A stretch of 64,000 bases of DNA, from NCBI GenBank assembly GCA_012519655.1, contig JAAYPS010000043.1, positions 1 through 64,000 of the forward strand, in the 5' to 3' direction. The notes beneath the pieces were generated by a model. The model was not told where the DNA came from, did no database searches, and saw nothing but the letters and a program-made list of their open reading frames with translations. Position numbers and translations under genes: made by a program. This document shows, one piece after another, positions 3,218 to 47,351 of this stretch (its first letter is position 1; each line of letters starts with the position of its first letter). Source of the stretch: Clostridiaceae bacterium. GTDB lineage: Bacteria > Bacillota > Clostridia > DSM-8532.

Positions 3218-3796
3218 ATGTTTGTTTTTGTTGGCCTCGGTAATCCTGGGAGACAATATGCAAAAACCAGGCACAATATAGGATTTGAATGTATCGATTA
3301 TATATCATATATGTATAAAATACCCATCATGAAGACAAAGTTTAAAGCTCATTTAGGTGAAGGATTTATTCAAGGTGAGAAGGTTCTACTTGTTAAACCG
3401 CAGACATATATGAACAATAGCGGTGAATCTTTACGGGAAATAGTTGAATATTATAAATTGGATGTTGATAAATTAGTAGTAATATATGATGATGTTGATC
3501 TGGATTTAGGAATAATTAGAATACGGCCACATGGAAGTTCTGGCACGCATAATGGTATGCGCTCCATTATTTATCAATTAAGATCGGACGAATTTCCTCG
3601 CATACGTATTGGGATCGGCAGACCTGAGCATCCGCAGGATTTAGTTTCATTTGTTCTGGGTAAATTAACAACAGATGAGCAACAGATTATGGCCAAGGCA
3701 ATAGAAAAAGTTGGACAATCAGTTGCTGAGATAGTTGCCTCAGGGATTGACATGGCTATGAGTAAATATAATGGAAAAGCCAGTGATTCTATTTAG
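3218..3796 (+). CDS. pth: Peptidyl-tRNA hydrolase
   Basis: It cleaves the ester bond of peptidyl-tRNAs that drop off ribosomes and so recycles tRNA. The 192-aa protein has the family core VGLGNPG at residues 5-11, the catalytic histidine in TRHNIGFE (His19), the substrate loop MNNSGES (about 66-72), YDDVDLDLG and GSSGTHNGMRSI. The ribosome binding site GAGGATGAGGG precedes ATG 3218. Pth lying directly before mfd is a common Firmicute order. Length and motifs are complete. Confidence 0.97.
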   Translation: MFVFVGLGNPGRQYAKTRHNIGFECIDYISYMYKIPIMKTKFKAHLGEGFIQGEKVLLVKPQTYMNNSGESLREIVEYYKLDVDKLVVIYDDVDLDLGIIRIRPHGSSGTHNGMRSIIYQLRSDEFPRIRIGIGRPEHPQDLVSFVLGKLTTDEQQIMAKAIEKVGQSVAEIVASGIDMAMSKYNGKASDSI

Positions 3797-3856
3797 TTTT
3801 TTAGATAGTGCAACAATAAACAAGGATTAATTAAAGAGTGAAACTTGGGGACACTG

Positions 3857-35486: not shown

Positions 35487-37256
35487 ATGAAAAAGGATAT
35501 AATAATATTTTTAGTAATATTAATATTGGTAACGGGGTGTGCTGTAGGTACGGCGCTGATTTACAATCGCTATTTTAAGGCAAATGAGGCTGTTGTAAAT
35601 TGTTATGATGGCACAGACACAATACTTGTTATTGAAGGACAAGAGGTTTTAAGTAAAAATCCACCTCGGATTGTTGAAGGACAAATTCTTCTACCATTTG
35701 ATACAGTCAAAGCTCATTTTGATCCTTATATTTGGTGGGATGAAACTCTAAATAAGGTTACAGTTACCACTTATGATAAAGTGATAAAGATGGAAACAGA
35801 TAAACTGGATGCCTTTATTAATGAAGAACCTCTGGAATTAAAATTTCCAGCCACTGAGATTGATGGTGTGCTGTATCTTCCCATTGAATTTTTATCATCA
35901 TATTATAAAATCAACATTAGGTATGCAAACAATTCAAATGTTGTTATTGTTGACCGTGAAGACGTAATTCATAGAATTGGATATCCTGTGAGTACTGGGG
36001 CCATTGTAAGAAAGGGCAGGAGTATAAGGTATCCCATTATAAAGATATTTGAAAACTACGCTCTCCATACTGAAGAATCGAAAATGTTCATTTTTGAAGA
36101 GTACGACAAATGGTATAAGGTAAGAACAGATGAAGGCTACCTGGGTTACATTAAAAAAGAAGATGTTGTAATAAAATCAATTGAGATAGGAATAATCCCT
36201 GATAAAGTTAAAAATAAACCAGAATTACCAGAGGGCAAAATTAATTTGGTTTGGGACCAGATGTATAGTCCTACAAAATCATACCTTGAAAGAGTAAACG
36301 AGGATGGCATTGACGTTATGTCACCTACATGGTTTCAAGTTGCAAACAGTAAAGGCGATTTGATTAACCGAGTAGATCCCCAATATGTACAATGGGCACA
36401 TGAGAATGGTTACCAAGTGTGGGCACTTGTGGCTAATGACTTTGGAAATATAGATGATACAAGTGAAATATTGAATAATGGATTAAAAAGAGAATATATC
36501 ATTAAGCAGTTACTTGCTTTTGCGTCGCTATATGAGCTCGACGGAATAAACTTAGATTTTGAAAATATTTATAAACATGATAAGGACGCTTACACTCAGT
36601 TCGTTAGGGAGATAACGCCTTTACTAAGAGAACAAGGTCTTATTGTATCTGTAGACGTTACTATTCCTGATGGTAGTGATACATGGTCAAAATGCTACGA
36701 CAGAAAAGCTCTTGCTGAAACTGTGGATTATGTATGCCTCATGACTTATGATCAAACATGGGCTGGGAGTAGAGTTGCTGGCTCCACTGCACAAATTGTA
36801 TGGGTTGAAGAAAATTTGAAAAAGACATTAAAAGAAGTTCCTGCTGAAAAACTTTTATTGGGAATTCCACTGTATACACGCCTTTGGGAGGAAACTACTG
36901 ACGAGAACAGCGGAAAGGTAACAGCTAAAACAGGTAAAGCTTTGACCATTCAAGCAGCAGAGCGCTTAATAGAAGAAAACAACGCTATACCTGTATGGGA
37001 CGAGGAGAGTGGTCAATACAAAGTCACTTATGAAAAAGAAAATGTAACATATAAAATGTGGCTTGAAAACCATCATTCTGTAAATTTGAAATCGTCTTTA
37101 GTTCATAAATACAATCTTGCAGGAACCTCTTCATGGAGTCATAATTTCGCAAATGAAGAGGTTTGGACAGTTCTTGCCCAAAATTTGAAAAATACCACCC
37201 ATTATAATGAGTGGCACAGTCAATATGCGCTAAACCAAGCAGATAACCAGGAGTGA
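35487..37256 (+). CDS. Membrane-anchored GH18-family glycosidase with copper-amine-oxidase-like and SH3 domains
   Basis: A surface or spore-associated cell-wall hydrolase candidate. From ATG 35487 (after CCAGGGGG) it is 589 aa. Residues 4-16 are hydrophobic and end in LVTGC, a possible lipobox, so it may be a lipoprotein; a plain transmembrane anchor is the alternative. A copper-amine-oxidase N-terminal-like repeat follows (about 50-155), then a bacterial SH3 domain (about 175-230), then a GH18 barrel (about 250-570) with the catalytic motif DGINLDFE, complete with the acid glutamate. Relatives include the clostridial/Bacillus YaaH/YdhD-type spore and wall GH18 proteins. The track start 35313 adds 58 residues over a terminator and is rejected. 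Confidence 0.88.
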   Translation: MKKDIIIFLVILILVTGCAVGTALIYNRYFKANEAVVNCYDGTDTILVIEGQEVLSKNPPRIVEGQILLPFDTVKAHFDPYIWWDETLNKVTVTTYDKVIKMETDKLDAFINEEPLELKFPATEIDGVLYLPIEFLSSYYKINIRYANNSNVVIVDREDVIHRIGYPVSTGAIVRKGRSIRYPIIKIFENYALHTEESKMFIFEEYDKWYKVRTDEGYLGYIKKEDVVIKSIEIGIIPDKVKNKPELPEGKINLVWDQMYSPTKSYLERVNEDGIDVMSPTWFQVANSKGDLINRVDPQYVQWAHENGYQVWALVANDFGNIDDTSEILNNGLKREYIIKQLLAFASLYELDGINLDFENIYKHDKDAYTQFVREITPLLREQGLIVSVDVTIPDGSDTWSKCYDRKALAETVDYVCLMTYDQTWAGSRVAGSTAQIVWVEENLKKTLKEVPAEKLLLGIPLYTRLWEETTDENSGKVTAKTGKALTIQAAERLIEENNAIPVWDEESGQYKVTYEKENVTYKMWLENHHSVNLKSSLVHKYNLAGTSSWSHNFANEEVWTVLAQNLKNTTHYNEWHSQYALNQADNQE

Positions 37257-37295
37257 AATACCCACCACATAAGAGACGGAAAAATATCAGCTGAT

Positions 37296-37853
37296 CTATT
37301 TAATAAATGTAACTTTTGAATGATCCCTCTCATGGGGTTCTTTTTCCATAGCAGCATACCCGACAGCTACAGCGAGACCATATTCATGACCTTCGGGAAA
37401 TTGTAATTTGTTTTTCCAGTTTTCTGCAATTTCACCTTCAAAAACAACTCTGGGTAAACCAAGAATTACACTATCTAGTCCCATGGATTTGGCAGCTACA
37501 GCAATGTTTTGTGCGGCAATACCCACGTCTATCTGATACATTCCCTCAGGCTTTGCAGAAATGACAATAACACAAGGGGCATCATAGAAAACTTTGTTAT
37601 TTCTTGACTCTAGACGTTGTATTATATTCTCGTCGCCTATATTCTTAAAATATGCTACCACGCCTTGTCCCAATTCATTAACAATAGATTGATTTTGCAC
37701 AACAATAAAATGCCATGGCTGAAGATTCATAGCGCTTGGAGATGCCAATGCCGCCTCCACAAGAGCGTTTATCTGCTCCTTATTTAATTGTTTTTTTTGA
37801 TATGCACGAATACTTCTCCTTGCTTTAATGGTTTCAAGAACTTTGTTATCCAC
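37296..37853 (-). CDS. Nitroreductase-family flavoprotein
   Basis: A 185-aa FMN-binding oxidoreductase with RRSIRAYQ near the N-terminus (the FMN-phosphate motif), ASPSAMNLQPWHFIVV (about residues 38-53) and GLPRVVFEGE before a C-terminal GYAAMEKEPHERD. It uses NAD(P)H to reduce quinones, nitro compounds or related acceptors; the physiological substrate is unknown. The start is GTG 37853, with GGGAGG seven bases upstream. It is convergent with the GH18 gene (39-base gap) and has no operon partner. Confidence 0.9.
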   Translation of the reverse strand: MDNKVLETIKARRSIRAYQKKQLNKEQINALVEAALASPSAMNLQPWHFIVVQNQSIVNELGQGVVAYFKNIGDENIIQRLESRNNKVFYDAPCVIVISAKPEGMYQIDVGIAAQNIAVAAKSMGLDSVILGLPRVVFEGEIAENWKNKLQFPEGHEYGLAVAVGYAAMEKEPHERDHSKVTFIK

Positions 37854-38038
37854 CGTAATCCTCCCTTATAAAAATATTACTTAATAGTATGCTCTTTAGA
37901 TATGAATTACATTTATCCCAATAAATACACTAACTATGATTGTAACACAATTTGCCTTAAGGGCAAACAGGAGGCAATTTTTATCGTCGAAATCAAATTG
38001 ACTTACCCGAGCATGCAAATATATTCTGTCTGAGATTA

Positions 38039-38059
38039 TTTGTGCCAATAATGACGAAA
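38039..38059 (+). repeat. Direct repeat copy 1 flanking the accessory patch
   Basis: TTTGTGCCAATAATGACGAAA. It matches the copy at 40719-40739 at 19 of 21 positions, in the same orientation. The rest of 37854-38182 is AT-rich with no other gene and holds the promoter listed next. Confidence 0.5.
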
Positions 38060-38133
38060 AATATGACTTTAGGTATAAGAAGTAGAAATAATGAAATAAT
38101 TAACGAGAAGTCATAAATTTGTAACAATAAGCA

Positions 38134-38162
38134 TTGTAGATGAGCATAAAATGTTATATAAT
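38134..38162 (+). promoter_or_regulatory. Sigma-A promoter of the HTH-ImmA-PIN operon
   Basis: TTGTAG, 17-base spacer, consensus TATAAT, 20 bases before the HTH start. Confidence 0.7.
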
Positions 38163-38182
38163 GATTACAAGGAGGGTTTTAT

Positions 38183-38536
38183 ATGAGCTATGCTTTGGGC
38201 AGTAGAATTAAAGAATTGCGTACAAATCGTAAAATTAGTCAAGAACAAATGGCGGATGTTTTGGGGACATCAAGGCAAAGATACTCACGTATAGAAAATG
38301 GTCAAATAGACATTTCTTTCGTTATGATTAAAAGAATAGCTGAATATCTTGGTGTTCCAACATCAGAGATAACCTGTGCAGAAGAGGAAAAAAAGAAACT
38401 TACTACTTATTTCAGAGAGAAGTCCAGTAATAAAAATGTTATGGACTCTGTCGCCAAAATAGAAGAAATGTTAGAAGTTTTTAATGCTCATGAAAAATTG
38501 TATTATCAGATGAGGGTTCGTAATGATGGTAATTGA
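38183..38536 (+). CDS. XRE-family HTH regulator paired with ImmA
   Basis: The 117-aa protein has a classic Cro/C1 helix-turn-helix at residues 5-60 (RIKELRTNRKISQEQMADVL, SRQRYSRIENGQ), then a charged helical tail of about 55 residues that could dimerise or contact the peptidase. It is the first gene of a three-gene overlapping set. In ImmR/ImmA-type modules the regulator represses its own operon until the ImmA peptidase inactivates it; that role is inferred from the pairing. ACAAGGAGG precedes the ATG. The gene overlaps the next by 14 bases. Confidence 0.88.
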   Translation: MSYALGSRIKELRTNRKISQEQMADVLGTSRQRYSRIENGQIDISFVMIKRIAEYLGVPTSEITCAEEEKKKLTTYFREKSSNKNVMDSVAKIEEMLEVFNAHEKLYYQMRVRNDGN

Positions 38537-39329
38537 TAAAATAGATATTGAAGATAAGGCATTAAAATTTAGACAAGCTCATAATATTCAGACTTGTGGT
38601 ATAAAAGATATTTTTAGTATGATAGAACAAAGAAATATTGATTTAATTCGTTATCCGTTTGGTAAAGATGAATTATTGGGGTTTTGCACTGTATTTAAAG
38701 GTAAAAAAATTATTGTTTCAAATTCATCTGAAATTCTATCAAGGGAGATATTTACTATAGCTCATGAATTAGGTCATATATTATATGACTTTAATAATAG
38801 CAATCAAAATATAAATATAGATCTTGAGCTAAATGAGGAAACACAAGATATTTCTGAAGCTAGAGCTTTCTATTTTGCAAATTGCCTTTTAATGCCTGAA
38901 GAGCAAATGGTTAAATTTATTAAGTATGTATTGAAGAAGAAAAACAAGGAATTAAATGCTCTAGATATAGTTAGAATGCAGTTAGAATTTCAGGTAAGTT
39001 ATGCAGCAGCTGTAAAAAGGCTTTATGACATTGGGTTTATAACCTTTAATCACAAAAGTGAGCTATTTAACGAGAGAAATTCTATTACATCGAAATCTTT
39101 GTTTAGAATGCTCCAAGCAGACGAAAGGTTGTTAAAGTCGGCAGATATTGTTCAAATTCCATCTAGATATTATGAGTATGTAATCAGTAATTATAATAAT
39201 GGCTATATACCTTATGCAAGTTTGGAAAAAGCTCTTGCTCTCATAGGTATAGATGCTAAAGTTTTGAAAAAAGAAGAGAAAAATGATGATGAACTAAACA
39301 TAGATGATATATTTGAGGAGTTTGAATGA
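38523..39329 (+). CDS. ImmA/IrrE-family metallopeptidase
   Basis: The 268-aa protein has the zinc-peptidase motif HELGH (His81, Glu82, His85) in TIAHELGHILYDF, and the third-ligand region ISEARAFYFANCLLMPEE near residue 120, typical of ImmA/IrrE. The family cleaves or binds partner XRE regulators, as in ICEBs1 ImmA. A helical C-terminal half of about 140 residues follows. It overlaps both neighbours, by 14 bases upstream and 4 downstream, so the three products are made together. An antitoxin-like function for the downstream PIN protein is possible but unproven. Confidence 0.9.
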   Translation: MMVIDKIDIEDKALKFRQAHNIQTCGIKDIFSMIEQRNIDLIRYPFGKDELLGFCTVFKGKKIIVSNSSEILSREIFTIAHELGHILYDFNNSNQNINIDLELNEETQDISEARAFYFANCLLMPEEQMVKFIKYVLKKKNKELNALDIVRMQLEFQVSYAAAVKRLYDIGFITFNHKSELFNERNSITSKSLFRMLQADERLLKSADIVQIPSRYYEYVISNYNNGYIPYASLEKALALIGIDAKVLKKEEKNDDELNIDDIFEEFE

Positions 39330-39712
39330 TGGACGCATCATTGGACACAGATATTATAATACATTTGTATAAAAGCAATAAGAAGGAGCTATTGTTTTCT
39401 TCCTTTGATAAGCTTTACATACATGAATATTTATTAAGAAATGAAATACAAAGAAAATCAAATCTAGTATATGAAGAAGTTCTCTTTGATGTAGATAATA
39501 GTAGGATTGAAATCATAGGAAACAAAGAATTGATCAAAATGGGAATCAAATCATTATTTGAGAATTATAAGAGTGAATACTATTATCTGTTTGATATGGG
39601 TGAATTATATGCCATAGCTTTAGCTAAAGCCATGGGTATTGCAGCATTCACCTCTGACGATACAAAAGATTTTGGACCCCATGATACACTAGTAATTCTG
39701 CAATTCTGTTGA
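39326..39712 (+). CDS. PIN-domain-like protein, probably truncated at the C-terminus
   Basis: The 128-aa product begins ASLDTDIIIHLYKS, with PIN-type N-terminal acidic residues (Asp7, Asp9), and continues to MGELYAIALAKAMGIAAFTSDDTKDFGPHDT (quoted in part), the region of the conserved Glu and SDD acids. Family relatives I know continue for about 30-50 more residues; here the frame ends five residues after GPHDTLV. The opposite strand at that point is the broken end of an AraC gene. I infer a deletion fused the two 3' ends. If active it would be an RNase toxin. Start ATG 39326 overlaps the ImmA stop; ATG 39329 is equally possible. Confidence 0.7.
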   Translation: MMDASLDTDIIIHLYKSNKKELLFSSFDKLYIHEYLLRNEIQRKSNLVYEEVLFDVDNSRIEIIGNKELIKMGIKSLFENYKSEYYYLFDMGELYAIALAKAMGIAAFTSDDTKDFGPHDTLVILQFC

Positions 39713-40381
39713 TGCTTAACTTGGGGTTTTTAAGTAAATTCTTTGCCTTGGATATGCGTATTTTGTTTATGTAGTCCAGCAAGTTTTCTCCTGTCTGCTC
39801 TTTAAATTTTCTGGAAAGATATGTGGGATTCATGTCCAAATACTCGGCTATATTTGAAATATTCAAATTGTAATTCATATAATTCTGAACTATATAATTT
39901 TCAATATTTTCAATGAATTTATCCTTTTGAATTTCACCAATTAGCGTAAGTTCATGTTCTATTGAATGGAATATGTCATCAAGAACATTTTTCATTTCTG
40001 AAATATTCTGACACTTCAAAAGCCTTTCTACAAAGTCGTCACAGTTTAGAAGGTTATGGCCTACGGAATTACTCAGCTCGTATAATGCCTGCGTAATTGT
40101 GTTCATCATAGAAAACATAACGCATTTTCCCATGCCTAATGATATATCTGATTCATTCTGGAGTTTGGAAATTACATCATTCATTATTTCATTGGCTTTT
40201 CTAACGTCGGTTCCTTTAATACAATTACTAATTCTCTGTTGTATTTCAAGGGGGAGAATATAACTTTATTTGAAATAGTAGAAAGGAAAATACTAAGAAT
40301 AATTGGTATTAGCATCATAAATATATAAGAAAACAACCATGTTTTAAAAATACTTCTTTTGCTCTTAAATGCTATTCTCAT
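39690..40381 (-). pseudogene. Remnant of an AraC-family (YesN-like) sensor-regulator
   Basis: Read on the minus strand, the gene opens with one membrane segment (KTWLFSYIFMMLIPIILSIF) as in membrane AraC regulators of about 750 aa. It then lacks almost all of the extracellular domain and second membrane helix. A frameshift near 40240 moves reading to KANEIMNDVISKLQ, followed by the AraC core (NISNIAEYLDMNPTYLSRKFKEQ). The second HTH stops at NRIAEL, where homology ends against the PIN gene. So there is an internal deletion, a frameshift and a missing C-terminus. The two track ORFs (39648-40184 and 40184-40381) are its pieces. Not functional as a regulator. Confidence 0.85.
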
Positions 40382-40718
40382 TTAACTCTCCTCGAACAAT
40401 AGTATTTGCTAATGCATTTCTATTCAATTTCCAGTTGGGTTTCATTCTACGATATATTATGGCTACATAAAATAAGCCTTAGTTAAATTATATCATGAAT
40501 TTGTATGAAATTGATGGTATAATCCTAATATATAGAACTTCTTACAGGCACAAAAGATAACTAGTTTCATCTACAGGACAGTATGATTACTAGTTCTATA
40601 AAAGTAGCCGAATTTTCACCAGTTGTTACTCCAAAGTAGGTTTCTCATCTTTAACAGATAAAGGCTGGATTAGTGGGACTTTATAATATAAGCCTTTGAA
40701 GGTAAACTTAAGAATGGT
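40382..40718. other. Intergenic region between the AraC remnant and the aldo/keto reductase
   Basis: No gene seen. It contains a 7-bp inverted repeat AACTAGT/ACTAGTT (about 40559-40595) and an isolated TATAAT near 40520 without a well-spaced -35. The right copy of the direct repeat follows. Confidence 0.4.
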
Positions 40719-40739
40719 TTTGTGCCAATAATTTCGAAA
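40719..40739 (+). repeat. Direct repeat copy 2 flanking the accessory patch
   Basis: TTTGTGCCAATAATTTCGAAA, 19/21 identical to 38039-38059. It ends 11 bases before the aldo/keto reductase ATG. Confidence 0.5.
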
Positions 40740-40750
40740 GAGTGATTAAA

Positions 40751-41722
40751 ATGAAAAAAGTTTTACTTAACAATACACAGTTATGTGTTTCTCAATTAAG
40801 TCTAGGTACAGTGAATTTTGGTACAGTTATGGATTCTAAAGCATCAAAACACCAGCTTGATATCTTTTTTGAGTTAGGAGGCAATTTTATAGATACAGCT
40901 CATGTATATGGTGATTGGGTGCCCGGACCAAAGGGAAGAAGCGAGAAGATAATTGGAGAATGGCTTAAAGAAACCGGGCATAGACATGATGTTATTATAA
41001 GTACAAAAGGCGCTCATCCAGTTCTTTCTGACATGAGTTCAAGAATTAATCCTGTAGAGATAAAAAAAGACATAAATGAAAGTTTAGAGTATTTGAATAC
41101 AGATTATATAGACCTATATTTTTTGCATCGCGATGATTCAGATAAGCCAGTATCAGAGATTTTAGATGTTTTAGAGCAGGCACGGCAACAGGGGAAGATT
41201 CGATATTATGGTTGCTCTAACTGGGCTTTGTCTAGAATTATTGAAGCAAATACTTATGCTAAAGAACATGGCTATTCAGGATTTGTGTGCAACCAACTTA
41301 TGTGGAGCTTGGCAGATATTAAAGAAAATGCGATAACAGATAAAACACTGGTTTTAATGGATGAGGAAACATTTAATTACCATGAAAATACCAACATGAG
41401 TGTAATGGCGTATACTTCAGCAGCAAAAGGATATTTCACTAAATTATTTACAAACAAGGATTTATCCGACAAAATATCATCCAGATATGATACGCTATCA
41501 AATAAGCTCATATTTGATGAGTTGATTAAAGTAGCAAAAGAAGTTGGTGCCAGCTTAATTGAAGTTGAACTAGCATACATTATGCATCAGAAATTTGCAT
41601 CTGTTCCCATTGTGTCATTTAGTAATGATGAACAGTTGAAACAAGGAATAAAAAGCTGCAAATTAATGCTTGATGATGAAATGATAAAGACATTTAGAGA
41701 ATTAAAGAAATATGTGGTATAA
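40751..41722 (+). CDS. Aldo/keto reductase
   Basis: An NAD(P)H-dependent carbonyl reductase of the (beta/alpha)8 AKR fold. The catalytic tetrad is visible: Asp and Tyr in FIDTAHVYGDW, Lys in IISTKGAH and His in YFLHRDDS. Cofactor-binding segments GKIRYYGCSNW and VPIVSFSNDEQL follow. From ATG 40751 the product is 323 aa, of normal length; the track's GTG 40742 lies in the weak site AAAGAGTGAT. Substrate unknown; single gene with no partner. Confidence 0.9.
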   Translation: MKKVLLNNTQLCVSQLSLGTVNFGTVMDSKASKHQLDIFFELGGNFIDTAHVYGDWVPGPKGRSEKIIGEWLKETGHRHDVIISTKGAHPVLSDMSSRINPVEIKKDINESLEYLNTDYIDLYFLHRDDSDKPVSEILDVLEQARQQGKIRYYGCSNWALSRIIEANTYAKEHGYSGFVCNQLMWSLADIKENAITDKTLVLMDEETFNYHENTNMSVMAYTSAAKGYFTKLFTNKDLSDKISSRYDTLSNKLIFDELIKVAKEVGASLIEVELAYIMHQKFASVPIVSFSNDEQLKQGIKSCKLMLDDEMIKTFRELKKYVV

Positions 41723-41860
41723 GAACATAATGAGTAAAAGCAATTTCATTCCTATAAGCTGTGCAATTGCTTCAATTTGCGCTAATTATGTAAGCACATT
41801 ATAATATATATTATTAATTGCTTTTTGATGACTACCTAATGCATGCTAAGGAGAACAGAT

Positions 41861-42991
41861 ATGCCACCACTAAATCTACTGATAAAGCCTTCCTCTGGCA
41901 ACTGCAATCTGAGTTGCAAATATTGTTTTTATCAATCCATTACTGAAAATAGAAATGTAAAGTCCTACGGTATGATGAGTATTGACTTACTTGAGGAGCT
42001 TGTAATAGAAAGCCTTAAATACGCTGATAAATACTGTACTTTTGCATTTCAGGGTGGGGAACCTACACTGGTAGGACTTGATTTTTATGAAAAACTAATT
42101 AAGTTTCAAAAAAAGCACAACTCTAAAAACATACAAATTACTAACTCTATTCAGACAAACGGAATGGTTATTGATAATAACTGGTCAAAATTCTTTGCTC
42201 AGAACAATTTTCTTGTCGGGATTTCTTTGGATGGTCCTAAGGATATCCATGACGTTAATAGGGTTGATGCCAAAAATTCTGGCTCCTTTTCTAAAGTGAT
42301 GCAAGCAATAGATACATTTAACAAGTATAATGTAGAATACAATATTTTAACTGTGGTAAATTCATTAACTTCAAGACATATCCAAAAGATATACAATTTC
42401 TTTAAAAAAGAGGGTTTTAAATATCTGCAGTTCATCCCATGCCTTGACCCATTAAATGAAGCACCAGGAAAACACGACTATTCCCTTACTCCAAGAAGGT
42501 ATACATTTTTCTTAAATACTCTTTTTGATTTATGGTACGCTGATATAAGACAAGGGAATCCAGTTAGCATCCGTTATTTTGATAATTTAGTAAGTATGTT
42601 AATGGGATATCCACCAGAATCATGTGGGATGAGTGGTGTGTGTTCTTGCTACTTTGTCATAGAAGCCGATGGTAGTACTTTTCCGTGCGATTTTTATGTC
42701 ATTGATGAATGGAAACTTGGCAACATAAAAAATGAAACCTTTGATGAGATGTATAACTCTGAAAATGCTACAAAGTTTGTTGAGGTCTCTAAAAATATAG
42801 ATCCTAATTGCAATAAATGCCCATATCTTGTGCTATGCCGTAGTGGTTGTAGGAGATATAGAGAGCCCTTTGAAAATGGCTTGCCAGTGTTAAACTATTT
42901 TTGTTCCTCATATAAGGAGTTTTTCGGCTATGCTGGAAAAAGGCTTGAAGAGATAGCTAGAAGACTTTCACAACGGAATTCACTACGCTAA
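41861..42991 (+). CDS. Radical SAM/SPASM enzyme, anaerobic sulfatase-maturating type
   Basis: AnSMEs convert an active-site Cys or Ser of sulfatases to formylglycine under anaerobic conditions. The 376-aa product begins PPLNLLIKPSSGNCNLSCKYCFY (quoted in part), with the SAM-cluster cysteines Cys15, Cys19 and Cys22. FQGGEPTL and ISLDGP follow as in the family, and the C-terminal SPASM domain holds seven or more cysteines for two auxiliary clusters (CSCYFVIEADGSTFPCDFY, CNKCPYLVLCRSGCRR). The track start 41843 overlaps AAGGAG; ATG 41861 is correct. No sulfatase gene lies nearby, so the target is elsewhere or another peptide. Confidence 0.88.
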   Translation: MPPLNLLIKPSSGNCNLSCKYCFYQSITENRNVKSYGMMSIDLLEELVIESLKYADKYCTFAFQGGEPTLVGLDFYEKLIKFQKKHNSKNIQITNSIQTNGMVIDNNWSKFFAQNNFLVGISLDGPKDIHDVNRVDAKNSGSFSKVMQAIDTFNKYNVEYNILTVVNSLTSRHIQKIYNFFKKEGFKYLQFIPCLDPLNEAPGKHDYSLTPRRYTFFLNTLFDLWYADIRQGNPVSIRYFDNLVSMLMGYPPESCGMSGVCSCYFVIEADGSTFPCDFYVIDEWKLGNIKNETFDEMYNSENATKFVEVSKNIDPNCNKCPYLVLCRSGCRRYREPFENGLPVLNYFCSSYKEFFGYAGKRLEEIARRLSQRNSLR

Positions 42992-43100
42992 TAATAATAC
43001 TGTTAAATAAAGAATTGTGTAAGAACTAAATTGTTTTGAAAAGAAATTAACCATGAGTGAGAAACAAGATATTAGTTAGATTAAATTCGGGAGGTTTAAT

Positions 43101-43424
43101 ATGTTTGTTAAAAATGAAAATACAAAATCACAGAATGCGGGAAATGGTGTTACTCGCAAGATATTAGGAAGAGGCGGATCTTTGATGATGGTAGAGGTTA
43201 AGTTTGATAAAAATGCAATAGGAGATCCCCATACCCATCCTCACGAACAAGTAAGCTATATAGCAAGCGGTTCTTTTGAGTTTACTCTCGAGGGTGAAAA
43301 GCAGATCTTAAAAAAGGGTGACAGTGTTTATATTCCTGCAAACGCAATTCATGAAACAGTAGCTCTAGAGGATGACTCAATTATTTTAGATGTGTTCACC
43401 CCACAGCGCGAAGACTTTTTATAA
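43101..43424 (+). CDS. Small single-domain cupin protein
   Basis: The 107-aa protein is one cupin_2 barrel. The metal motif is HTHPHEQVSYIASGSFEF (about residues 47-64, three His and one Glu), and the second motif is PANAIHETVAL. It may bind a metal and a small ligand, as isomerase, dioxygenase or sensor; nothing decides. GGGAGG precedes ATG 43101. It lies 109 bases after the radical SAM gene, same strand, but no shared role can be shown. Confidence 0.85.
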   Translation: MFVKNENTKSQNAGNGVTRKILGRGGSLMMVEVKFDKNAIGDPHTHPHEQVSYIASGSFEFTLEGEKQILKKGDSVYIPANAIHETVALEDDSIILDVFTPQREDFL

Positions 43425-43558
43425 GATTGGTGGATGAGGGTAATTGATCTAAAGTATCTGAGTATTGAACTTAAATTTTAAGGTTGTTTTATCGAGTTCG
43501 ATTGTTATAGAATACTTATGAGATGGCTGGTAATAAATAGCTCTCTGGTATTATATTT

Positions 43559-43680
43559 GTCATAGTTATTGATTACCTCTCTGATTTCATGATGGGAGTT
43601 ATTACTCTGTGATATTTTAGGTCGTCATAGCCTTTGATTACTGCTCCTATTTTTATGGTGGGAGATAATAATAATGTGAA
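43559..43680 (+). repeat. Imperfect tandem repeat of about 65 and 57 bases before the O-antigen ligase-like gene
   Basis: Copy 1 (43559-43623) and copy 2 (43624-about 43680) share GTCATAG, TTGATTAC, ATG-TGGGAG and GTGA at matching places. Each copy can form a small CTC(C)/GGGAG hairpin. No gene is present. Confidence 0.5.
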
Positions 43681-43699
43681 ATTGTAAGTGGGGTTTGCG

Positions 43700-45448
43700 T
43701 TGATAAAGTTATTTCGTCAAAGATACAAAACAGGCTTATTAAGAAATACCGATAAGCTATGTATACCTGCGTTCATAATTTCTATTGTTATACCCGTAAT
43801 AGTACTGCGTATTACTGTTTTTCATAATGAAGAGATGGCACAAGTTCTGCTGAACACCCAAAGTTATGACGATTATTATAGCTTAATTAAAATGCTCTGC
43901 CTTTTGCTTGCAACTATACTGCTCTTTATAATATTTGCACATAAAAGAGACACTGAAAAACAAATTCATAAAAGTCTGTTACTGCTGATTCCCTATGTGG
44001 CTTGTATATTATTATCAGTTATTTATTCTGATTATAAAATCTCTAGTGCATTCGGAATAGTGGATCATTACGAGGGTGCACTGACCCAGCTATGTTATTG
44101 TTTTGTTTTAGTGTTCTTCTATTACTTAGTGGATAATACATCAATAGTTATTACCATTTTCAAAATGCTTTGTATTGGCTCCTTCATTGTTGCATTCATA
44201 GGTTTGTTACAGTTTATAGGGATATTGTACACAGAAAGACCATATGAAATCTCTTCGACTATAGGAAATTCAAACTATGTTGGAACATATGCTGCTTTGT
44301 TAGTGCCAATTACATTTGCATTAATACTTATAGAAACAGACAAAATAAAGAAAGTGCTAAATATTATCATATATTTCGGTGCTGCTTTTTTTCTATTAGT
44401 GGGCTCGCAATCAAGAGCAGGATATATTGCATTTGCTGTAACTACTTTATTATTTCTTATTCTTATGTGGGGCGAGTTAAAGAAACAATTGAAATGGTTT
44501 TTTGCTACAGTTTTTTATGGTGTAATAATATTTATACTAATGAGCACGTATTCGAATGGTGTAATATGGAATGAAGTTCAAAGTCTAAACCCCTTAAAAC
44601 AAGAAGTACACAAAGGAAAACTCATTTTTGAAGATGTCATAATATATGGCACCAATGTAGAGGTCAAAACTAACAAATGGATATTAAATCTGGAATACAC
44701 AAACGAAGGTTTTATTTTCTACAATGAGGACATGCAGCATATCCCACATAAAAAAGATAACAATGCAATAGATATACATTTTTTGCAGGAACCATATCAA
44801 GAAATAAGTGTACGTGAAATAAAGAATGAAGATTATACATGGATAATGCTGGAGGTAGAAGGTAAGGATATTGAGTTCGTATATGTCAACGACAAGCTTA
44901 AAGTAGTTGGTTTTAATGGAAAAGTAACTGATATAGAGGCGGCGGAATCTTTTGGGTTTACCGGTAAAGAATCATTTGCATCGGGTAGGGGTTATATATG
45001 GTCAAGATCAATACCATTACTGAAAAAAGCAATATTTATTGGATATGGCCCTGATACATTCATATACATTTTTCCACAAAACGATATAGTAGGTAAGCTC
45101 AATTATGGGGCGATATGGGCGATTATTTCAAAGCCTCATAATTGGTATTTACAAATAGCTTTAGGTTATGGTGTGCTCTCACTTATATGTATATTGGCTT
45201 TGATTATTTGGCTTTTAGTAAATGCATTAATGTTTATTTATAGAAATGTAAAAACGCTAACTCCATCAGCCAAAGTTGAAGGAGTTAGCGTTAAATATTC
45301 AGATAGAAGAATTATTGTATCTGCTATTATTCTTTCTGTTGCCGGTTATTGTATAACTGGCGTATTTAATGATAGTATTGTGGCTGTTTCGCCAATTTTC
45401 TGGATGCTATTAGGCATGGGCATAAGACAGTCTAGCCTAAAGCTTTAA
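43700..45448 (+). CDS. O-antigen ligase/polymerase-like membrane protein (Wzy_C family)
   Basis: A polytopic membrane protein of about 582 aa with about 11-12 hydrophobic segments. The family core is visible: GNSNYVGTYAALLVPI (about residues 190-205), SQSRAGYIAF, a large outer loop of about 150 residues (about 290-440), then GYGPDTFIY and SKPHNWYLQIALGYGVLSL. Such proteins transfer or polymerise lipid-linked glycans, or glycosylate proteins. The track's GTG 43688 lies in AAGTGGGG; TTG 43700 fits the spacing better. The gene ends one base before the end of the convergent glycosidase gene. A surface glycan role fits the neighbours. Confidence 0.82.
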   Translation: MIKLFRQRYKTGLLRNTDKLCIPAFIISIVIPVIVLRITVFHNEEMAQVLLNTQSYDDYYSLIKMLCLLLATILLFIIFAHKRDTEKQIHKSLLLLIPYVACILLSVIYSDYKISSAFGIVDHYEGALTQLCYCFVLVFFYYLVDNTSIVITIFKMLCIGSFIVAFIGLLQFIGILYTERPYEISSTIGNSNYVGTYAALLVPITFALILIETDKIKKVLNIIIYFGAAFFLLVGSQSRAGYIAFAVTTLLFLILMWGELKKQLKWFFATVFYGVIIFILMSTYSNGVIWNEVQSLNPLKQEVHKGKLIFEDVIIYGTNVEVKTNKWILNLEYTNEGFIFYNEDMQHIPHKKDNNAIDIHFLQEPYQEISVREIKNEDYTWIMLEVEGKDIEFVYVNDKLKVVGFNGKVTDIEAAESFGFTGKESFASGRGYIWSRSIPLLKKAIFIGYGPDTFIYIFPQNDIVGKLNYGAIWAIISKPHNWYLQIALGYGVLSLICILALIIWLLVNALMFIYRNVKTLTPSAKVEGVSVKYSDRRIIVSAIILSVAGYCITGVFNDSIVAVSPIFWMLLGMGIRQSSLKL

Positions 45449-45449
45449 T

Positions 45450-47351
45450 TTAGTTACCAAGTTTTCTTTGGATCCTGGCTTTCTGGCTCTCGCTAGGATT
45501 ACATGTTAGAGCTTTGTTATAGCAGTCTTTTGCAGCTTCATAATCCTGCATTTGGTAATGTGAGTACATATCACCTAACGCAATCCAATACTCAGCGGTA
45601 TCTGGCATTTGATTTGTTAAATCCTTAAATATGCCCAGAGCCTTAGGAATATCACCCAACTCTGCATATGTCCAACCAAGAGAATTCCATACTGAATAAT
45701 CCTTTGGTTGGAGCGTCAAGAACTGTTCATAATATATTGCAGATTTTGCCTTGTCGGTTGATGAATAGTGTTTTGCAAGCTTTAACATCGCACCAGCGTG
45801 GGAAGGCTCAATCTCTAATACCTTCAAAAACAAGTTTTCTGCTTCTAGAGTGTTTCCTTTGTCATATTCGCTAATGGCTTTATCATAAACTTCTGTAGGG
45901 TTTGTATTCTCCATTTTAATAGTAACCATATTGCTATCGCGTAGGAAATCCACTTCTGCACCGAATATTTCTGTCATAAATCTAACAGGAACGTGAGTCC
46001 TATTGTATCGTACCTGTACCGAAACATCCAATTGATGCTCTATCCCATTTACTAGTACGATATCGCTGTCATTCCACATTTCCACCTTGGTATCACCTTT
46101 TGATGCAAAAATTGCACCAGTTGCTGAATCCCAACCTACATCAGCACCGACGGACTCCATTACACCTCTTAGTGGTACCATAGTTCTGCTATTTGAGAAA
46201 TAGGGATCTGTGTCGAAAAACATTTCTTTACCGTTAAGCTGTAGGCGTATAGGTGTATCTTTTTTTGCGGTAATTACTATGGAATTACTTAATTCTCTAG
46301 TGGGGGTTGTGATTATTTTACCTTCGAACATTAATGCTGATGATGCACCACCATCTAAATTGATTGCATTTATAAGACCTATATCTTTTAAAATAGTAGC
46401 AAGCTCAACAAGAGTTACATTGTTTACTGTGCCCATTACAAGAAAGGAATTTTTATCTTCACCAATAAAGCTTCTTTGAGCACGTCCTGTAAACTTCACA
46501 TCTGTGAAGCCTTCTTTAGCAGCATTGTCTAGAGCTTCTCCTTTTTTCACTAGCATAGGACCTGCTCCAATAGTTGTTCGTACATCTGACCAGTCAATTG
46601 TATTTCCCTTTTTCATGCCTTGAGAAAAGTCAGTTTGATTGTAATTTACTTTATAATCTACGCCATCTCCAATTTTAAATAAGGCGGAATATACTTCAGC
46701 TCCGAAAACCAGTGTATAGCCATCACTATGTATAGGAGCCAATCCCTTTTTGATTTCCACAACCTTATTATTTCTAATAACGATGGCGGTTTTATTACCA
46801 GCATCAACTTCATTACCAAAGTCCGGAGTGTAAAGGATATTGGCATTGTCAGTGTAGAAAACTTGATTTATACCCCAAACCGACCAGTTGTAAGGGTATT
46901 CCCAGTTACCATTTATCGACCCTGAAATAGTTGTATAAAGCCAGTCGGTTTTTATTTTATTATCGGCGGTAAAACCAATAGATGACCCACTGTTACTTAT
47001 AAATACATTCCTTCCCTGAACCTGTATGTTTCCAATAGGCTGAAGATCAGAATGTACGTTGAAAAACGTACCATTTATCGCTGCAATTATTTCAGTATTT
47101 TCATCTTTAGCGCTATTGTAAATGTTTTGGAATGTGTCAACCTCACCAACACTACCCTTTGCTAATACCGCTTCAACCCTTATATTAGGATTTTTCATAT
47201 CGATCCATACGGTATTAACGTCCCTGACGCCATCTTTAAGCTGAACTCTTATAGTCTTAGTATACGTTTGCTCTGCAGCGTATACATTGTTTTGCAGAAG
47301 AATACAGAACATTAAAGCAAATACAAATAGTAATAATTTCTGTGTTTTCAT
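45450..47351 (-). CDS. Secreted phosphodiester glycosidase (NAGPA-like) with copper-amine-oxidase-like and TPR domains
   Basis: The 633-aa exported protein has a signal peptide (residues 1-25, cleavage after VYA). A phosphodiester glycosidase domain (about 60-345) with the signature INLDGGASSALM follows; this family removes GlcNAc from phosphodiesters in wall or exopolysaccharide. Next comes a copper-amine-oxidase N-terminal-like domain (about 352-470, VPLRGVMESVGADVGWD, HVPVRFMTEIFG), then about four TPR repeats (about 480-625). AAAGGGTGATGTA precedes the ATG and an extended -10 (TGGTATAAT) lies about 50 bases upstream. The three-domain fusion suggests a wall-bound enzyme that binds partners by TPR. 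It is convergent with the Wzy_C gene. Confidence 0.88.
   Translation of the reverse strand: MKTQKLLLFVFALMFCILLQNNVYAAEQTYTKTIRVQLKDGVRDVNTVWIDMKNPNIRVEAVLAKGSVGEVDTFQNIYNSAKDENTEIIAAINGTFFNVHSDLQPIGNIQVQGRNVFISNSGSSIGFTADNKIKTDWLYTTISGSINGNWEYPYNWSVWGINQVFYTDNANILYTPDFGNEVDAGNKTAIVIRNNKVVEIKKGLAPIHSDGYTLVFGAEVYSALFKIGDGVDYKVNYNQTDFSQGMKKGNTIDWSDVRTTIGAGPMLVKKGEALDNAAKEGFTDVKFTGRAQRSFIGEDKNSFLVMGTVNNVTLVELATILKDIGLINAINLDGGASSALMFEGKIITTPTRELSNSIVITAKKDTPIRLQLNGKEMFFDTDPYFSNSRTMVPLRGVMESVGADVGWDSATGAIFASKGDTKVEMWNDSDIVLVNGIEHQLDVSVQVRYNRTHVPVRFMTEIFGAEVDFLRDSNMVTIKMENTNPTEVYDKAISEYDKGNTLEAENLFLKVLEIEPSHAGAMLKLAKHYSSTDKAKSAIYYEQFLTLQPKDYSVWNSLGWTYAELGDIPKALGIFKDLTNQMPDTAEYWIALGDMYSHYQMQDYEAAKDCYNKALTCNPSESQKARIQRKLGN

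What the first reader, a model, noticed from the sequence alone, without database searches (positions are those of the whole stretch)
38183..40381. HTH-ImmA-PIN operon cut into an AraC gene: two broken 3' ends share one junction
Seen: a PIN-like frame ends five residues after GPHDTLV, and on the opposite strand the AraC helix-turn-helix loses homology at NRIAEL at the same place (about 39685-39715). The AraC piece also has a frameshift and an internal loss. Known: PIN toxins and AraC second HTHs normally extend further. Inference: a deletion joined a mobile HTH/ImmA/PIN module to a resident AraC gene and trimmed both. The module is a candidate defence or addiction system that has lost its toxin end, or a new variant with a short toxin.
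Basis: partly seen in the sequence, partly recalled or inferred. Interest (0 to 1): 0.6.

Follow-up and report, generated by a model that had tools for sequence, protein, structure and literature searches.

The report
Truncated phage-type toxin operon abutting pseudogene
A three-gene stress or anti-phage operon of a type carried by Clostridium prophages has lost about 44% of its toxin gene (the 3' end) at the exact point where it abuts the broken 3' end of a dead regulator gene; this is ordinary gene decay, not a new short toxin.

Summary
The module is an Xre-type HTH (38183-38536), an ImmA/M78 peptidase (38523-39329) and a PIN-like nuclease (39326-39712); it matches PADLOC's candidate system PDC-M69A/B/C. 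Relatives of the PIN protein at 35% identity or more are about 220-228 aa. The window copy follows them to residue 122 (position 39694) and then lacks about 97 residues. DNA similarity starts at the promoter (38148) and ends at 39687-39695. At that point, on the other strand, an AraC-type gene (full relatives about 760 aa) loses its last 28-33 residues. That gene also lacks about 500 internal residues; one out-of-frame deletion explains both the 'frameshift' and the 'internal loss'. The missing PIN end is nowhere else in the assembly. Close relatives of the module lie in Clostridium prophages. This type of operon was predicted in 2009 as a three-part toxin-antitoxin system (PMC2701414). Best reading: a prophage-type operon with HTH and peptidase intact and its toxin truncated, probably dead, by a join to a decaying AraC gene. 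No empty site was found, and assembly error is not fully excluded.

The parts
38120..38158 (+). putative operator half-sites TGTAAC and GTTATA, 27 nt apart, around the promoter of the operon
   Evidence: same half-sites TATAAC..GTTATA, 26-27 nt apart, upstream of L006, L008 and L063; compact palindrome of the same half-sites in L003, L057, L059
38134..38162 (+). sigma-A-like promoter: TTGTAG (38134-38139), 17 nt, TATAAT (38157-38162); AGGAGGG ribosome-binding site at 38170-38176
   Evidence: read from the sequence; DNA similarity to relatives starts here, at 38148-38151
38183..38536 (+). Xre/Cro-type HTH protein, 117 aa (PDC-M69A / CapH-like)
   Evidence: HTH_3 1.3e-17; PDC-M69A 3e-10, capH 1.6e-9; 70-77% to close relatives
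38523..39329 (+). ImmA/IrrE-type M78 metallopeptidase, 268 aa, HELGH intact (PDC-M69B / CapP-like)
   Evidence: Peptidase_M78 3.7e-17; PDC-M69B 9.5e-34, capP 9.1e-19; H81, E82, H85, E112 invariant
39326..39694 (+). remaining N-terminal 122-123 residues of a PIN-like nuclease; relatives are 220-228 aa
   Evidence: fold matches to VapC-type PIN proteins, best E 0.05, prob 0.98
39693..39695 (.). junction: end of PIN homology (+) and end of AraC homology (-)
39694..40285 (-). C-terminal part of an AraC-type regulator, cut within its second HTH
   Evidence: 32% to residues 545-743 of the 763-aa G001 protein, of which the last few lie past the junction; HTH_18 positions 1-59 of 80; 28-33 residues lost at the end
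40262..40381 (-). N-terminal membrane segment of the same AraC gene, out of frame with the rest; about 500 residues lost between
38039..38059 (+). left copy of a 21-nt direct repeat (TTTGTGCCAATAATGACGAAA)
40719..40739 (+). right copy of the direct repeat (TTTGTGCCAATAATTTCGAAA), just before the aldo/keto reductase gene

Best explanation
This is a degenerate copy of a prophage-type HTH-ImmA-PIN operon. In intact copies the HTH protein most likely represses its own promoter; the ImmA-type peptidase, triggered by DNA damage or phage infection, cleaves the HTH protein; and the roughly 220-aa PIN nuclease is then made or freed and stops growth, probably by cutting RNA. Here a join to the 3' part of an already decaying AraC gene removed about 97 C-terminal residues of the PIN protein and about 30 of AraC. 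HTH, peptidase and the putative operator remain. The PIN stump keeps its conserved acidic residues but lacks everything after GPHDTLV and is most likely unstable or inactive. Shown: the anatomy, both truncations, the shared junction, the prophage relatives. Inferred: the regulatory circuit, the nuclease activity, the loss of function, and that a deletion made the join.
For: Full-length relatives 220-228 aa, window homology stops at residue 122. Sharp end of DNA similarity at 39687-39695. AraC homology ends at the same place and the gene is otherwise broken. PIN end not elsewhere in the genome. Module in prophages L063-L065 between replication genes and an HNH gene. HTH, ImmA and the PIN part all show low pN/pS, so the truncation is young. 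Operator half-sites conserved. PDC-M69A/B/C and capH/capP matches. Circuit: CapP cuts CapH on ssDNA binding (PMC13373217); VapBC52 combines HTH, IrrE-type peptidase and PIN toxin (PMC13273310); Xre-COG2856-PIN predicted as three-component system (PMC2701414).
Against: No empty or intact site in related genomes, so the event is not seen directly. No experiment. Pfam, NCBIfam and PHROGs do not name the third protein; its PIN identity rests on motif, weak fold matches and PDC-M69C. No Cys between H85 and E112 as in the cysteine switch described for VapB52, so triggering may differ.
Confidence: 0.82

Rival explanations
1. The junction is an assembly error that fuses two unrelated loci, and both genes are intact in the cell.
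For: Draft assembly of 198 contigs; no second assembly with the same junction could be tested; exact junction not in viral contigs.
Against: The junction lies inside a 68-kb contig. The PIN 3' end is not found anywhere else in a 97.6% complete assembly. The AraC gene is broken a second time, by an internal out-of-frame loss, so this is a decaying stretch.
Confidence: 0.08
2. The 128-aa PIN protein is a complete, working short toxin.
For: The conserved acidic residues (D6, E39, E92, D110 in family numbering) are all kept, the frame is open, and the pN/pS of the remaining part is low. Ordinary VapC toxins are only about 130 aa long (chain lengths).
Against: No relative at 35% identity or more is this short. 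The last five residues are AraC antisense. The conserved VIPFAFYE segment that follows in relatives is missing. The low pN/pS reflects history before the cut. Model confidence collapses from residue 103 on.
Confidence: 0.07
3. The whole block (module plus AraC remnant) came in as one unit between the 21-nt direct repeats, so PIN and AraC were joined before arrival and AraC was never the resident gene.
For: The repeat (2 mismatches) flanks exactly module plus AraC remnant, occurs nowhere else in the genome, and was not matched in 500 shuffles. G+C is 0.30 in both parts against 0.356 for the window.
Against: The repeat is imperfect, no recombinase or transposase lies between the copies, no empty site was found, and the chance test was made after the repeat had been seen. 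This rival changes the order of events, not the nature of the thing; its confidence is not exclusive of the best explanation.
Confidence: 0.25

Closest known systems
PDC-M69 (PADLOC phage defence candidate; genes A, B, C)
   Same: Same gene order and all three models match
   Different: Toxin gene cut at residue 122; the ~220-aa subfamily matches PDC-M69C only over its N-terminal ~110-120 residues, even when intact
Xre-COG2856-PIN three-component toxin-antitoxin systems (predicted, PMC2701414)
   Same: Xre HTH, Zn peptidase and PIN in one operon, common in phages and prophages
   Different: HTH and peptidase are separate proteins here; toxin truncated
CapH+CapP regulators of immune operons (PMC13373217)
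   Same: Small HTH plus ImmA-type peptidase upstream of an effector; capH and capP model matches
   Different: Effector is a PIN-like protein, not CBASS or another listed immune operon; ssDNA triggering not tested
VapBC52 of Mycobacterium tuberculosis (PMC13273310)
   Same: HTH, IrrE-like peptidase and PIN toxin combined
   Different: There HTH and peptidase lie in one antitoxin that cuts itself; the window peptidase has no Cys between H85 and E112 as in that cysteine switch

Membership tests
PDC-M69 | Adjacent genes matching models A, B and C | tested here: met
   3e-10, 9.5e-34 and 1.4e-10
PDC-M69 | Full-length third gene | tested here: not met
   Match stops at model position 125 of 188; relatives of the window protein are 220-228 aa against 128 here. 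The window copy is a broken member.
PDC-M69 | Protection against phage | not testable with these tools
   Candidate system; no paper naming it was found
Xre-COG2856-PIN toxin-antitoxin system | Xre HTH, HEXXH Zn peptidase and PIN nuclease in one operon | tested here: met
   the PIN identity from motif and fold only
Xre-COG2856-PIN toxin-antitoxin system | Toxicity and its neutralisation | not testable with these tools
   Needs expression assay
PIN domain | Conserved acidic residues and PIN topology | tested here: inconclusive
   Acidic residues conserved; fold hits almost all VapC/PIN but best E 0.05 on a model of pLDDT 60; no Pfam hit
CapH+CapP regulators | HTH plus M78 peptidase with intact zinc ligands | tested here: met
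   HELGH and downstream Glu invariant; capH 1.6e-9, capP 9.1e-19
CapH+CapP regulators | Repressor binds an operator of its own operon | tested here: inconclusive
   Conserved half-sites TATAACAT upstream in relatives; no binding data
CapH+CapP regulators | ssDNA-triggered cleavage of the HTH protein | not testable with these tools
   Needs biochemistry
AraC regulator with N-terminal membrane and sensor part | Complete AraC DNA-binding domain (two HTHs) | tested here: not met
   HTH_18 positions 1-59 of 80; 28-33 C-terminal and about 500 internal residues lost: pseudogene

The most novel reading that the evidence does not exclude
The HTH-peptidase pair is kept because it still does something without its toxin, for example as an immunity or anti-addiction remnant that cross-regulates intact prophage copies of the operon, or the shortened PIN protein acts as an interfering partner of full-length copies.
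Probability: 0.06. Interest if true: 0.5.

Novelty: new member of a known kind. Interest (0 to 1): 0.2.

Why it matters
It is a clear example of how such mobile operons decay on a chromosome: the toxin end is lost while the controller genes stay intact. It also adds a prophage-borne subfamily (220-aa PIN, conserved TATAACAT operator half-sites) to a candidate defence system for which no paper was found here. For the genome itself, the PIN and AraC frames should be annotated as pseudogenes.

Tried and rejected
Short-toxin variant: rejected by family lengths. The match of the final ILQFC to the relatives' ILEFC, which would suggest an in-frame internal loss of PIN: rejected because that DNA is AraC antisense. 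Remnants of the PIN end within 37000-42000: only chance-level hits. Missing PIN end elsewhere in the genome: none. Empty site in the genus: AKR found in G002 and G003 but with other neighbours, and no good ortholog of the nitroreductase there. 21-nt repeat upstream of AKR in G002 and G003: absent. Phage and plasmid collections for the PIN: no match. Structure of the full-length homologue: pLDDT 48, not used.

Full report
What is there. The window carries, on the + strand, three overlapping genes: an Xre-type HTH protein (38183-38536, 117 aa), an ImmA/IrrE-type M78 peptidase (38523-39329, 268 aa, HELGH motif intact) and a 128-aa PIN-like protein (39326-39712). On the minus strand follow two frames of an AraC-type regulator (39648-40184 and 40184-40381). 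PADLOC's models match the three genes as PDC-M69A (3e-10), PDC-M69B (9.5e-34) and PDC-M69C (1.4e-10); the first two also resemble capH and capP.

The PIN gene is truncated. Searches of species genomes, viral contigs and about 790 drawn genomes gave relatives of the whole module. Ten different PIN proteins at 35% identity or more align over nearly the whole of a 220-228 aa protein: L006, L008, L063, L050, L069, L070, L003, L059, L072, and L057, which has one stop near its start. The window copy follows the close group at about 66-69% identity to residue 122 and then has five residues that are antisense AraC. In the class-wide survey its open frame was the only uninterrupted one below 190 aa among the hits. 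In the phylum-wide survey the other short frames were stop-interrupted or distant pieces (G495 with a stop, G601 162 aa at 25%, G583 56 aa). The lost part, which includes VIPFAFYELLFL in relatives, is not found elsewhere in the assembly. At DNA level the module is 69-72% identical to L006, L008 and L063 from the promoter (38148-38151) to 39687-39695, and there similarity stops.

The AraC gene is a pseudogene. Its closest same-genus relative (G001, L040) has 763 aa. The window keeps about 40 N-terminal residues (membrane segment) and, in another frame, the part equivalent to residues 545 to about 735. One out-of-frame deletion of about 1.5 kb near 40260-40290 explains both the frame change and the internal loss. 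At the other end the AraC domain stops at NRIAEL/LVY, where relatives have another 28-33 residues. Both genes thus stop at the same place, about 39694.

How the join arose. A deletion between two convergent genes is the simplest account: at least about 400 bp by the lost coding parts, possibly much more. I could not prove it. The three same-genus genomes have no counterpart of the locus: two have the aldo/keto reductase with other neighbours, and none has a good ortholog of the nitroreductase. A 21-nt direct repeat with two mismatches flanks module plus AraC remnant (38039-38059 and 40719-40739). It occurs nowhere else in the genome, and none of 500 shuffles of the two flanks matched it. It is absent upstream of the reductase in the two relatives. 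It may mark insertion of the whole block, but no recombinase lies inside and no empty site is known. Assembly error is unlikely but not excluded.

Mobility. Close relatives of the module are in predicted proviruses (L063-L065), placed between replication genes and an HNH nuclease gene, and in Clostridium genomes. The PIN protein is identical over 220 residues in a C. liquoris contig and a Tepidanaerobacter metagenome bin, which fits recent transfer, or mis-binning of that bin. In L006 the module lies next to a large helicase-like gene. G+C of the module is 0.30 against 0.356 for the window. No phage genes remain next to the module in this window (by reading the translated frames).

Likely mechanism of the intact kind. 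Operator-like half-sites TATAACAT/ATGTTATA flank the promoter in the close group and form a compact palindrome upstream of the promoter in the distant group, which suggests self-repression by the HTH protein. CapP-type peptidases cut their HTH partner when they bind ssDNA (PMC13373217). VapBC52 uses the same parts with a PIN toxin (PMC13273310). Makarova and colleagues predicted Xre-COG2856-PIN operons as three-component toxin-antitoxin systems in 2009 (PMC2701414). I infer the same circuit here. The PIN identity rests on conserved acidic residues, on weak but consistent fold matches to VapC proteins and on the PDC-M69C match; curated libraries give no meaningful hit.

State of this copy. HTH and peptidase look intact, with low pN/pS against all relatives compared; so does the remaining PIN part, although synonymous sites are near saturation, so this is only a rough measure. 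It points to a truncation that is young compared with the divergence. Loss of the toxin end is an easy way for such an operon to decay. The PIN stump keeps its acidic residues but lacks about 44% of the protein, and the model loses confidence from residue 103 on. I judge it non-functional, by inference.

Verdict. The module is a degenerate member of a known kind.

Noticed in passing
38039-38059 and 40719-40739: A 21-nt direct repeat (2 mismatches), unique in the genome, flanks the module plus AraC remnant; it could mark the ends of an inserted block.
   Followed up: partly
38120-38158; upstream regions of L003, L006, L008, L057, L059, L063: Operator-like half-sites TATAACAT/ATGTTATA are shared by two subfamilies of the module whose HTH proteins are only about 40% identical, in two different spacings.
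   Followed up: partly
L004, L005 and L054 (G042 contig C400, about 3434-3798): Another decayed copy of the PIN gene, with two stop codons; no HTH or ImmA frame was detected in the stretch held around it.
   Followed up: no
L063 4852-6666, L008 3852-5666: Intact modules sit at the same prophage position, after a helicase and a small regulator-like gene and before an HNH gene, which looks like a cargo hotspot.
   Followed up: no
L006 2408-7615: In Clostridium sp. D43t1 the module is next to a 1061-aa phospholipase-D/helicase-like protein, perhaps a defence neighbourhood.
   Followed up: no
40742-47351: In same-genus G002 the aldo/keto reductase lies between the UDP-sugar dehydrogenase-like and phosphodiester glycosidase-like genes; in the window it lies about 4 kb away on the other side of the glycosidase-like gene, so this stretch has been rearranged.
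   Followed up: no
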